64,000 bases of DNA from Desulfurococcaceae archaeon AG1 (lineage in GTDB: Archaea > Thermoproteota > Thermoprotei_A > Sulfolobales > AG1). The DNA lies in the NCBI GenBank assembly GCA_003116855.1, contig BEWT01000011.1, positions 1-64,000 of the forward strand. Direction: 5' to 3'. Of the stretch, positions 13,174-45,990 are shown piece by piece (position 1 is the stretch's first letter; each line of letters starts with the position of its first letter). Both the position numbers and the translations under genes were made by a program. The notes below the pieces were generated by a model. The model was not told the origin of the DNA. It worked only from the letters and a program-made list of their open reading frames with translations, and searched no databases.

Positions 13174-13440
13174 CCGTTTGTCCCTGGATGTTAATCCCAA
13201 TCACTTTATCTTCTCATGGTCAATCCAGGGGCTTCCACCTCAGCCCGCAGGGCCTCTAGCCCTGCAGGGTCATGGGCTGCCGTCGAGTCAAAGGGCACGC
13301 GGCTCCCATCTAGGTTGAGCCCTGGATGGCTTGGAGCGCTGCTCCCATCGCCGCCCGAGACCTGTGTGGGGGGACCCGCATCGAGAACCCCTTTCAAAGC
13401 TTATAGATACATCCTACGAGTATCAAAAAGAAAACAGCCC
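13174..13440 (-). mobile_element. TnpB-element relic A (internally deleted, both ends kept)
   Basis: On the minus strand, 13397-13206 still encodes the C-terminal tail of TnpB (GGDGSSAPSHPG, then DGSRVPFDSTAAHDP). It is followed by the 3' end shared with the complete element at 44520: CCGTTTGTCCCTGGAT at 13174-13189 and a matching inverted CCAGGGG segment near 13233. On the other side, AAAAAGAAAACAGCCC at 13425-13440 is identical to 45975-45990 upstream of the intact tnpB. About 1.2 kb of tnpB has been lost between the ends, so it is a 267-bp MITE-like derivative that needs a transposase in trans. Confidence 0.8.
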
Positions 13441-27694: not shown

Positions 27695-28003
27695 CTGTTT
27701 TCTTTTTGATATACATATTGATATACATAGGAAGGGTTAATAGGTTTTAGGAATGTTCATGAGCATTGAGGATAGCATGCCCCAAAGCTGCCTCCCCATT
27801 GATACACAGGGGTTTTATAAACCTTGAAAGATATTATCCCCAGTGTGGGTCTCCCCACAAGCCCTAGGTGGGAGCCGCGTGCCGTTTGGCTCGACGGCCG
27901 CCCATGACCCCGCAGGATCTCTCTGATCCTGCGGGTAGAGGTTGAAGTCCCTGGATATGACCATGAATAAAGTGATTGGAATGAACATCCAGGGACAAAC
28001 GGT
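27695..28003 (+). mobile_element. TnpB-element relic B (internally deleted), plus orientation
   Basis: The left end CTGTTTTCTTTTT (27695-27707) is the reverse complement of the left end of relic A and the intact element. The right part encodes the tail GGSRVPFGSTAAHDPAG at about 27870-27920. It is followed by GTTGAAGTCCCTGGATAT and the terminus ATCCAGGGACAAACGG ending at 28003, which are shared with the element at 44520. Its length is 309 bp. Immediately outside the right end begins the coding fragment at 28012. A TATA-like TTTATAAACC lies inside, at about 27813. Confidence 0.78.
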
Positions 28004-41918: not shown

Positions 41919-43452
41919 TTAGAATATCTTTATACCTAGCAGTTGTCCTAGTATGAATACTGATATGAAGAAGAACATGCATATGGCGCTGAAGAGTATT
42001 ATTGGTGGCCAGTAGTACCACTTCAGCCTTATTTCTTTGGGTAGCTTTCTGTTAATGTTCCATAGCAGGAGCCATGCGTAGAAGCCTCCGAAGTTAGCGA
42101 TATTAGCCGAGATCAGTAGAAGGACTAGCGGGGGTGCCTGCCATATAGCCCACATGGCAAACGCTGTATATCCGAGGAAGAATGTGTAGTAAACCCTCCT
42201 GACATCGCCCTTAGCCCATCTCCTAACACGCTCGGAGGTGCTCCAGAGTATGTCGGTAACGTTCCTGGTTAGCATATCCATGATCTGTAGCTGGGTTGTC
42301 CATAATATCAAGAAGCCTATGAGGGCTATGAAGTAGAAGCCTATTGGCCCCCATCTGGCGCCGAACTCGTTTGCTACATGGGCGGCAATGCCCCAGGCAG
42401 GTAGATCTGTGCCTAGGGGTACTACGCTTCTAACCATAATGGATGGTAGAACCATGCCTAGGAAGGCGAAGGTTGCGAATATTAGCCACTGATCGGCCAT
42501 TATTAATCTCTCCCAGAGCCTCCAGGTTGCTAGGTTTTCAGGGGTTATTTTGAATATTTTTCCTGTGGCTGATAGCTCTATCTTTTTACCGCCGATCATT
42601 GCTGGTATGTAGCCGACTAGATAGCTCATGCCATAGCCTTTATCTCTATAGTAGTTGGTTAGTAGGTAGTTGAATGCCGAGGCCCAAGCTATATATGCCC
42701 ACCAGCCTCCGAGGAGGAAGATATCTACTCCTTGTGGTATATAGCCTATACTTGTAAAGCCTACTAGCAGCTCGTTCCACACCTCAGGTGTAACAACCAT
42801 CAGTGCTAAGATAAATACAGATATAGTGATAAAGATGATAAGGTATCTGAAGATCAGCTCCAGGGTTGCAGCTATTTTACCTCCTATCATTACTATTAGG
42901 AGGGCTAGTAGGAATAGAGCCATACCTAGATACCTTACAAAGGCTGCCTCCCCAGCCCCTGGTACTCGGCCTAGAATGAATACCCCCAAGCCTGTAGCAG
43001 CTGCTAAAGCCCAGCCAGGCCATACGTAGCCAATAATTAGTGCAGCTGTTAGGAATGGTATCCAGAAGGCTCTGGGCTTATTCCTGGCCATATAGACTAG
43101 TGCTGGCTCGCCTATGGCTGCGGTGACTCTTGCGAAGGCTATATTATATATTGTCTGTAATACTACGCCGATCCATACTAGCCAGAACAGACCAAGCCCG
43201 TATTTAGCTGCCACCGCAGGGCCTAGCAGCCATTCCCCGCTACCTATAGCCCCGCCCAGGGCTATGAATGCAGGGCCTAGCATTGCTGCATAGATCTTCC
43301 AACAAGAAGGCTTGGAGACGTTGAATACTTCCTGAGGAGTTGGTAGCTTTTCAACAACCTCTAGAGCAGGGCCCTCACCGAGGGGGAATGTCTCCTTATA
43401 CCTTCTCGAGCTTCACAGCAGCTTTACTATCATCGTTGTTGTTGCCGCCCAC
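41919..43452 (-). CDS. Nramp-like metal transporter, with a 5' frameshift
   Basis: The main frame from ATG 43283 encodes 454 residues with about 11 membrane helices; it lacks the first helix of its family start. Reading upstream, the same frame continues without any ATG, GTG or TTG through YKETFPLGEGPALEVVEKLPTPQ. In the +1-shifted frame a well-led start (GAGGTGCTCTTC then GTG 43452) encodes GGNNNDDSKAAVKLEK and hits TAA at 43396. One +1 shift at GAGAAGGTATAAGG fuses both into one protein of about 505 residues. Either a mutation, a sequencing error or a frameshift site. The transporter should import Mn2+/Fe2+ or a related ion. Confidence 0.72.
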
Positions 43453-43822: not shown

Positions 43823-44519
43823 TCATATTCTAAATGTTGGTATGAAGACCTGGATTAGCTGTATTATTCCGTATGGTAGGTACACGGCAATACCTATTGT
43901 TGCTAGTATTACCACCACTATGTGGGGTCTATAGGGCTTTGGTAGGTATCTCATGTTTAGGTAGAGCAGTGCTATGCCCCATAGGGCTAGGGCGAAGAGA
44001 TGGGTAGCAGCAGTTGCGAAAGCCGCTAGCATTGGTAGTGAGAAGCCTGTGATGAATAAGATGCTACCAACTATAACTAGGTAGGGCCATAGATATAGCC
44101 TGACCTTGTTGGGGGTGATATCGACAGCCTTTCTAAACGTGCCCCTCAGCATATCGTAGATCGTCCACATATATACCTCGTGGAGCGAGTAGAAAGTTCC
44201 CCAGAGTGCGAAGAATGCACCAAGCCACCATATAACCCCTGCCCAGGGTCCCAAGGTCTGGGTGAGCCATGCCACCTGGGCTGCGACTAGTGCAAGGCCT
44301 GAGGGCGCGGTGTGCATTGGGCGCAGAACCTCTATAGTTAGTATTACAGCAGGCATTGTCACGATGAATACCATGAAGAACGATAGCCCGACATCGAATT
44401 TAACTGGTAATAGCCAGCCTCTCAACCTCCTTCGCGTCTCTTCATCCTCGGGTATAGGTAGTTTTGATAACCCAGTAATGTGAACCCTCTTTAACATCTC
44501 ATCCGAGAATCTCACCAAA
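43823..44519 (-). pseudogene. Second Nramp-like gene, 5' half lost at transposon insertion
   Basis: The fragment encodes about 230 residues that align by pattern with the second half of the intact neighbour: LPVKFDVGLSFFMVFIVTMP parallels LIMADQWLIFATFAFLG, and PHIVVVILATIGIAVYLPYGI the final helix. Its first half is found neither beyond the element (45991-46516) nor elsewhere in the window, so insertion was followed by deletion, or the element sits at a genuine boundary. The two transporter genes lie in tandem, so this could be a duplication whose first copy was destroyed. Confidence 0.7.
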
Positions 44520-45847
44520 CCGTTTGTCCCTGGATATGAAGGAATATCCAGGGACTTCAACCTCGCCCACAGGGATCTCTTTATCCCCATGGGTTCATGG
44601 GCTGCCGTCGAGCCAAACGGCATGTGGCTCCCATCTAGGTTGAACCCTGGGTGGCTTGGAGCGCTGCTCCCATCACCACCCAGGGCTTTTAACAATAAAT
44701 TATAGCATGCAACGACATCCCTATGCCATTTCTCCCTACCTAGCGAGCATATACCTATTCTCGAGCCGTTATATTTTATTTCTGATCTATGTATTGGGCA
44801 TTGCTTAGATGTATTCCTAGGATTAACATAGATTACTGGGACGCTGTGTTCTTTAGCCTTCTCCTCAATGGCTCTCTGGATGCCTTTGAATGCTGCTTGG
44901 AAGATCCTGTGTCTTAATTGCTCATCCCTAATCCTGGAGATCATGTTCTCAGCAGGCTTATCGCCGAGATCCTCGAGAACAACACCATATCCATGTTTTA
45001 ATGCCTCTCTAACGATTATGTTCGCTACCTTCCATCTGGTATTGTCTTTCTTTTCTTCCTCCCTAAGCTTCCTCAAGATCTTCCTCTTAGCACGGCATCT
45101 AGCATCGTAGATCTTATCGTATTTCTCCTGAACCCTCTTCCTCCTATAATAATAGCCAAGTGTTATTTTCTCAATATTTGTTTCAAATAGATATACCTTT
45201 CTGTTTATAAGCACTGCTACATTATTCTCATTAACATCCACAGCTATATAACCACTAGGCTTATATAACCTAACATCCTTTCTAAAAATGAGATATATGA
45301 TCAACCTTCTTTCCTTTCTATCAAGCTTTATCCTTGCCTCAGAAGCTAATCTCCAGCCGGAGTTGATATATTTATAGAATTGCTTGTGAGGAACTAGATC
45401 TACCTTGATCAATCCTCTATGCGTCGATATAGCTATCCTTGTTAAGCCCTCAAGCCTCCATAGGTGGTCGTCTAGCCATATCGAGATCCTCCTCACGCTA
45501 GGATATTCCTTATTCGTTGATCCTTCTTTCTTTAGCTTTAGAAAACTCTTAACCCTTGTGGATGCATCCTGACAAGCCGTGTGAACATAGTGCGATGGTA
45601 GGTGGGGATAGAGGTTACGCATCTCTCGGTATTTTAGGGCTTTAAGTTTTATGAATGATGTTATCCCCTCTTTAGCAGCACATATTACTAGCTGCTCAAC
45701 CACATTCCTATACGTATCCTCAAGTTCTATGAAAATCCTGAACAGTTTCTTAGGTATCCTCTCAGATCTAACAATAACCGTTCTCGTAACAATCGAAGCA
45801 TCTTCTCCATCGGTAAGCGCTAGGGATGCTTGTAAGAAGCAGCCCAC
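43823..45847 (-). CDS. TnpB RNA-guided nuclease fused in frame to the C-terminal half of an Nramp-like transporter
   Basis: 674 codons. Residues about 20-442 are TnpB of the IS605/IS1341 type: N-terminal HYVHTACQDASTRVKSF and SIWLDDHLWRLEG, RuvC-I Asp in IAVDVNENNV, RuvC-II Glu in VVLEDLGDK, a CPIH/GIC zinc-finger-like loop and RuvC-III Asp in WHRDVVACYNLL. The RuvC catalytic triad is intact. At residue 443 (position 44519) the element ends and the frame reads on into GLVRFSDEMLKR and about five membrane helices of a second Nramp-like protein. The usual TnpB stop is missing. GTG start at 45847. The chimera might be made, or the membrane part might be silent passenger. Confidence 0.8.
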   Translation of the reverse strand: MGCFLQASLALTDGEDASIVTRTVIVRSERIPKKLFRIFIELEDTYRNVVEQLVICAAKEGITSFIKLKALKYREMRNLYPHLPSHYVHTACQDASTRVKSFLKLKKEGSTNKEYPSVRRISIWLDDHLWRLEGLTRIAISTHRGLIKVDLVPHKQFYKYINSGWRLASEARIKLDRKERRLIIYLIFRKDVRLYKPSGYIAVDVNENNVAVLINRKVYLFETNIEKITLGYYYRRKRVQEKYDKIYDARCRAKRKILRKLREEEKKDNTRWKVANIIVREALKHGYGVVLEDLGDKPAENMISRIRDEQLRHRIFQAAFKGIQRAIEEKAKEHSVPVIYVNPRNTSKQCPIHRSEIKYNGSRIGICSLGREKWHRDVVACYNLLLKALGGDGSSAPSHPGFNLDGSHMPFGSTAAHEPMGIKRSLWARLKSLDIPSYPGTNGLVRFSDEMLKRVHITGLSKLPIPEDEETRRRLRGWLLPVKFDVGLSFFMVFIVTMPAVILTIEVLRPMHTAPSGLALVAAQVAWLTQTLGPWAGVIWWLGAFFALWGTFYSLHEVYMWTIYDMLRGTFRKAVDITPNKVRLYLWPYLVIVGSILFITGFSLPMLAAFATAATHLFALALWGIALLYLNMRYLPKPYRPHIVVVILATIGIAVYLPYGIIQLIQVFIPTFRI
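44520..44700 (-). ncRNA. Putative omega-RNA (reRNA) scaffold of the TnpB element
   Basis: In IS605/IS1341 elements the guide RNA scaffold overlaps the 3' end of tnpB and runs to the right terminus, with the guide being the first bases outside it. Here the 3' segment is the most conserved part among the intact element and relics A and B, even where the tnpB frame is lost, and contains the 12-bp hairpin next to the terminus. The guide would be the 16-20 bases below 44520 on the minus strand, which lie in the interrupted transporter gene. Inference from family architecture. Confidence 0.5.
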
Positions 45848-45990
45848 CAGAATATGCTTAGTGAGAGCCTTATAAATCTTTCCCTATAGTATTGATTGTG
45901 AATAGCTTCTCAACATTATAAGCTTCAATAGTTAGGGATGCCTCTAAAGCTTACAAACATTTCCTGAGAGCATAAAAAAGAAAACAGCCC
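44520..45990 (-). mobile_element. IS1341-type insertion element (tnpB only), complete
   Basis: The right end begins at CCGTTTG (44520) and carries a perfect 12-bp stem (GTCCCTGGATAT 44526-44537 with ATATCCAGGGAC 44544-44555, six-base loop), the structure bound by TnpA transposases. The left end is defined by AAAAAGAAAACAGCCC at 45975-45990, shared with relic A. There is no tnpA, so it moves only in trans. Between tnpB's zinc-finger/RuvC-III end and the right terminus lies the expected omega-RNA scaffold. Length 1471 bp. Confidence 0.8.

What the first reader, a model, noticed from the sequence alone, without database searches (positions are those of the whole stretch)
43823..45847. TnpB reads in frame into the membrane half of an Nramp-like transporter
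The nuclease keeps its RuvC residues (AVDVN, VVLEDL, WHRD) but has no stop at the transposon end; the frame continues through about 230 transporter residues. The conserved omega-RNA end lies exactly at the junction, so the guide bases below 44520 derive from the transporter itself, making the nuclease able to recognise and cut an uninterrupted allele. The fusion could also tether the nuclease to the membrane.
Basis: partly seen in the sequence, partly recalled or inferred. Interest (0 to 1): 0.75.

Follow-up and report, generated by a model that had tools for sequence, protein, structure and literature searches.

The report
Jumping-gene nuclease lacking its stop codon
A small archaeal jumping gene landed inside a metal-transporter gene, and because its nuclease gene has lost its stop codon the reading frame runs on into the broken transporter; this looks like a chance by-product, but the stop codon was lost in all four long copies in this genome by a paired change that kept the guide RNA's shape.

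Summary
One 674-codon frame (43823-45847, minus) joins an intact TnpB to the C-terminal 230 residues of an Nramp-like transporter, and the transposon end (44521) lies at the join. The element (44521-45990) is a tnpB-only member of an IS607-type family. An autonomous copy with an IS607 transposase and about 11 short copies sit in the same genome. Sister copies interrupt an acyl-CoA ligase and an MFS gene exactly as IS607 (GG exchange, no duplication) predicts. The fusion needs no special explanation. Relatives carry the tnpB stop (TAG) inside the last omega-RNA stem. In this genome that pair changed from A-U to G-C on both strands, removing TAG, and loop lengths shifted, so all four full-length copies of this subfamily read into flanking DNA. 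Codons 386-431 show RNA-level but no protein-level constraint, so a random tail is tolerated. A tail of at least 230 codons is expected at about 9% of GGG sites. Only the window copy is fused among 214 genomes. The transporter's N half is missing from the genome, so the half-transporter is probably dead. The guide derives from the transporter, as in any TnpB. A functional membrane-tethered nuclease is unsupported.

The parts
44521..45990 (-). tnpB-only IS607-type element, 1470 bp, left end GGGCTGTTTTCTTTTT at 45990, right end CAGGGACAAACG at 44521
   Evidence: Ends fixed by alignment with three sister copies; joining flanks at the same points in two sisters restores host genes
45869..45876 (-). 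TATA-like box (TTTATAAG) about 21 nt upstream of the GTG start, conserved in all four copies
   Evidence: function inferred
44678..45847 (-). TnpB nuclease body (about residues 1-390), RuvC D204/E292/D377
   Evidence: omega 0.10-0.16 between copies for residues 1-385
44521..44690 (-). omega-RNA (reRNA) scaffold overlapping the tnpB 3' end
   Evidence: fold -95.7 kcal/mol, z = -8.0; dS 0.09-0.19 against 0.45-0.63 upstream; no Rfam match
44526..44555 (-). terminal 12-bp stem; holds the TAG stop in relatives, CAG here, with compensated partner
44500..44519 (-). predicted guide TTTGGTGAGATTCTCGGATG, preceded by the fixed G at 44520
   Evidence: boundary inferred from IS607 TnpB work (PMC10711439)
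43823..44520 (-). C-terminal half of an Nramp-like transporter, in frame with TnpB
   Evidence: 79/76/73-74% identity to intact orthologs L003/L002/L004; Nramp_1 positions 232-402
44645..44687 (-). omega-RNA hairpin whose interior is inverted in the sister copy L038

Best explanation
This is a tnpB-only element of an IS607-type family that inserted at a GGG site inside an Nramp-like transporter gene (insertion inferred from sister copies). The lineage's omega-RNA terminal stem changed from CUAG/CUAG pairing to CUGG/CCAG pairing, which destroyed the TAG stop embedded in it (shown). Loop-length changes put some copies, including this one, in other frames (shown). Every full-length copy of this subfamily therefore reads past its right end, and the window copy happens to be in phase with the interrupted gene. 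TnpB works with its omega-RNA in the usual way, making a guide from the flanking transporter bases that would cut an empty allele and favour retention of the element (inferred from the family). The tail is incidental. The transporter's N half was later lost by deletion or by recombination between element copies (inferred), leaving a dead half-transporter.
For: Three sister copies at 85-87% aa identity all read past the right end. The autonomous copy carries an IS607 transposase (NF033518, 2.1e-69) and tnpB with the same right end. Relatives mostly end exactly 3 codons before the right end, in TAG. The stem pair is G-C in 15 and A-U in 14 sequences with no mismatch. 15 of 17 right ends in the genome have CAG, against 1 of 24 in relatives. 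Codons 386-431 have dN of the same order as dS (0.03-0.25 against 0.09-0.19) with low dS, so RNA rather than protein is conserved. Joined flanks of L036 and L037 restore 549- and 359-codon frames. Orthologs carry TGGG at the exchange point, as IS607 prefers (PMC6188088). 9.5% of GGG sites in the window would give a tail of at least 230 codons, so about one chance in three over four copies. The N half is absent from the genome while the same search finds the C half.
Against: The transporter half shows no stops or frameshifts and an omega of 0.07-0.10 like intact orthologs, so continued use is not excluded. The left flank is not transporter, so the insertion site cannot be rebuilt from both sides here. 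No expression or cleavage data exist. The genome is a 28-contig assembly, 94.8% complete.
Confidence: 0.87

Rival explanations
1. The fusion is a functional chimera: a TnpB tethered to the membrane by the half-transporter.
For: The frame is open and hydrophobic segments remain at residues 490-508, 590-608, 610-628 and 643-661. The nuclease residues are intact.
Against: Singleton among 214 genomes. Sisters have unrelated short tails. The pre-junction codons are free at protein level. The tail lacks the N-terminal half of the transporter fold.
Confidence: 0.03
2. The junction between the element's left part and its left flank is an assembly chimera, and the real locus has the transporter N half upstream of the element.
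For: Metagenome-type assembly in 28 contigs with several repeated copies; the left flank is not transporter; the N half is missing from the assembly.
Against: Copies differ by about 13% in DNA, so collapse among the known copies is unlikely. It would not change the right-end read-through.
Confidence: 0.12
3. Homologous recombination or gene conversion between element copies swapped the flanks and removed the N half (a more specific form of the main account).
For: Informative sites among four copies are strongly clustered: 31 runs against 66.8 expected, 0 of 5000 shuffles as low. The left end resembles L036, inner patches resemble L038.
Against: No reciprocal product was found; a simple deletion explains the flank equally well.
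Confidence: 0.4

Closest known systems
IS607-family elements such as ISC1926 of Sulfolobus islandicus and ISXfa1 (PMC6188088, PMC10711439)
   Same: Serine-recombinase TnpA, GG exchange site, no target duplication, tnpB at the right end, guide taken from right flank with a fixed first G
   Different: The window copy has no tnpA, and tnpB has no stop inside the element
SisTnpB1, archaeal TnpB nuclease shown to be active at 75 C (PMC10640517)
   Same: Archaeal TnpB, RuvC D-E-D, omega-RNA hairpins at the right end, solo-tnpB elements known
   Different: IS200/IS605 type with TTTAA/TTTAT motif; no read-through into host genes reported in the part read
sotRNAs / omega-RNAs overlapping archaeal tnpB genes (PMC12558985)
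   Same: Guide RNA overlaps the 3' end of tnpB
   Different: Loss of the stop through a compensated stem change was not described in the passages read

Membership tests
TnpB RNA-guided nucleases | RuvC D-E-D triad and TnpB fold | tested here: met
   D204, E292, D377 aligned with relatives; NF040570 2.7e-23 but below its 100-bit cut-off, TIGR01766 above cut-off
TnpB RNA-guided nucleases | omega-RNA at right end with guide from flank | tested here: met
   Fold z = -8.0, stem covariation, guide sequence; expression not tested
TnpB RNA-guided nucleases | RNA-guided cleavage of the empty site | not testable with these tools
   Needs biochemistry
IS607 family | GG exchange site without target duplication | tested here: met
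   Joined flanks of L036 and L037 restore genes; GG(G) at left ends; TGGG in orthologous empty sites
IS607 family | Serine-recombinase TnpA in the element | tested here: not met
   Window copy lacks it; an IS607 TnpA in the same genome (C4) sits with tnpB and the same right end, so this copy is a non-autonomous derivative
Nramp transporters | Both halves of the fold | tested here: not met
   Only profile positions 232-402 present; N half absent from genome

The most novel reading that the evidence does not exclude
In this lineage the stop-less tnpB is not neutral: each insertion yields a nuclease with a different tail taken from the interrupted gene, and some tails (here a membrane bundle) change where or how the nuclease acts.
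Probability: 0.04. Interest if true: 0.65.

Novelty: new variant of a known kind. Interest (0 to 1): 0.33.

Why it matters
It shows, in one genome, that constraint on the guide RNA outranks constraint on the protein's end: a stop codon embedded in an omega-RNA stem was lost through a paired change that kept the stem. It also shows how TnpB genes can capture host coding sequence by chance, a plausible source of domain fusions. As a mechanism it is otherwise ordinary TnpB biology.

Tried and rejected
Searched the genome for the missing transporter N half: none, with the C half found in the same search as control. Tested whether the tail's source was the neighbouring Nramp paralog (41919-43283): no meaningful similarity. 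Looked for neighbours of the intact orthologs in the window: no shared gene order. Searched for the left flank elsewhere in the genome: only left-end matches. Rfam found nothing. Literature searches for TnpB read-through or Nramp fusion found no precedent in the held library. Structure prediction was not run, since it could not decide whether the fusion is made or used.

Full report
What is there. The frame at 43823-45847 on the minus strand is 674 codons long. Its first part is TnpB, its last part the C-terminal half of an Nramp-like transporter. The window lies in an archaeal genome of 28 contigs, 94.8% complete. Intact transporters of 485-488 residues occur in three other genomes, described in their records as Sulfolobales or Desulfurococcaceae. 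The window tail is 73-79% identical to them, and homology starts exactly at 44521.

The element. Three further tnpB copies at 85-87% protein identity lie in the same genome. Aligning them fixes the ends at 45990 and 44521. A pattern search found 17 such right ends in the genome. Besides the four tnpB copies, one belongs to an autonomous element with an IS607 transposase next to a tnpB, and most of the rest are short copies with at most a remnant of tnpB. Joining the flanks of two sister copies restores an acyl-CoA ligase frame and an MFS transporter frame with no duplicated bases. That matches the IS607 rule of exchange at GG with no target duplication (PMC6188088). The intact transporters have TGGG at the matching point. 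The insertion of the window copy into its transporter is inferred from these, because its left flank is no longer transporter.

Why there is no stop. In most relatives tnpB ends in a TAG that lies in the 3' strand of the last omega-RNA stem, exactly 9 bases before the element's end. In this genome the stem carries CAG, and its partner on the other strand has changed from A to G. Across 29 right ends the pair is G-C in 15 and A-U in 14, never mismatched. In a wider, looser tally there is one A-C mismatch, in another genome. CAG is found in 15 of 17 right ends here and in 1 of 24 in relatives, including short copies where a stop codon is irrelevant. The change therefore belongs to the RNA or the element end, and the lost stop is collateral. 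In two sisters (L037, L038) the old stop is read as CAG; in the window copy and L036 the loop lengths also put the frame in another phase. Read-through also occurs in copies of the one held genome of the same genus and in a few others (L092, L104).

Why the tail is probably neutral. Between the four copies, codons 1-385 evolve under protein constraint (omega 0.10-0.16, dS about 0.45-0.63). Codons 386-431 have low dS (0.09-0.19) and dN of similar size (0.03-0.25), the sign of an RNA rather than a protein under constraint. The RNA folds far better than shuffled sequence (z = -8.0). If the copy were placed at every GGG in the window, 9.5% of sites would give a tail of at least 230 codons and 15.7% at least 100. 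One such tail among four copies is unremarkable. Among 214 genomes of the order no other uninterrupted open frame of this family is comparably long.

The missing half. The transporter's N half is absent from the genome, while the same search finds the C half. The remaining half corresponds to profile positions 232-402 and cannot be a complete Nramp fold. Its omega against intact orthologs is 0.07-0.10, no higher than most comparisons between them (0.07-0.13), so the loss looks recent. The four copies are mosaics of one another (31 runs of informative sites, 66.8 expected), so exchange between copies could have swapped the flanks, but a deletion or an assembly join is not excluded.

How it most likely works. 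A conserved TATA-like box lies just upstream of the GTG start. The transcript runs through the omega-RNA into the transporter remnant. TnpB of other elements is known to process its own mRNA into omega-RNA (PMC10278001) and to cut sites matching the guide (PMC8612924; PMC10640517). By analogy the guide TTTGGTGAGATTCTCGGATG would cut an uninterrupted allele of the same strain. Orthologs in other genomes share only 12-13 of 20 bases. None of these activities was tested here.

Verdict. The reading of the sequence is right and careful. The fusion is best seen as a chance consequence of a lineage-wide lost stop. The more interesting fact is how that stop was lost.

Noticed in passing
window 44645-44687; L038: The interior of the first omega-RNA hairpin is inverted in sister copy L038, changing the in-frame peptide from GGDGSSAPSHPG to GGLERCSHHHPG while keeping the stem.
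   Followed up: partly
window 13175-13440 (-) and right end at 28001 (+): Two further copies with the same right end and no full tnpB lie in the window (MITE-like).
   Followed up: partly
right flanks of own-genome copies L044-L060: In about 14 of 16 copies with a long right-flank frame the longest frame is on the element's strand. GGG is commoner on sense strands (1063 against 750 in the window), which explains only part of it.
   Followed up: partly
G000 C4:18657-20564 (L117): Autonomous IS607 element: HTH plus resolvase TnpA overlapping a diverged tnpB (41-43% to the window TnpB) with the same CAG right end but a TGA before it.
   Followed up: yes
TnpB zinc-ribbon region, residues 346-377: This subfamily and its near relatives have CPIH...CSxG in place of the CxxC...CxxC seen in the autonomous copy, so the zinc ribbon is altered.
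   Followed up: no
G196:C9:6206-7336: A more distant tnpB match (46%) lies in a 562-codon open frame but with one TGA inside the match; not examined.
   Followed up: no
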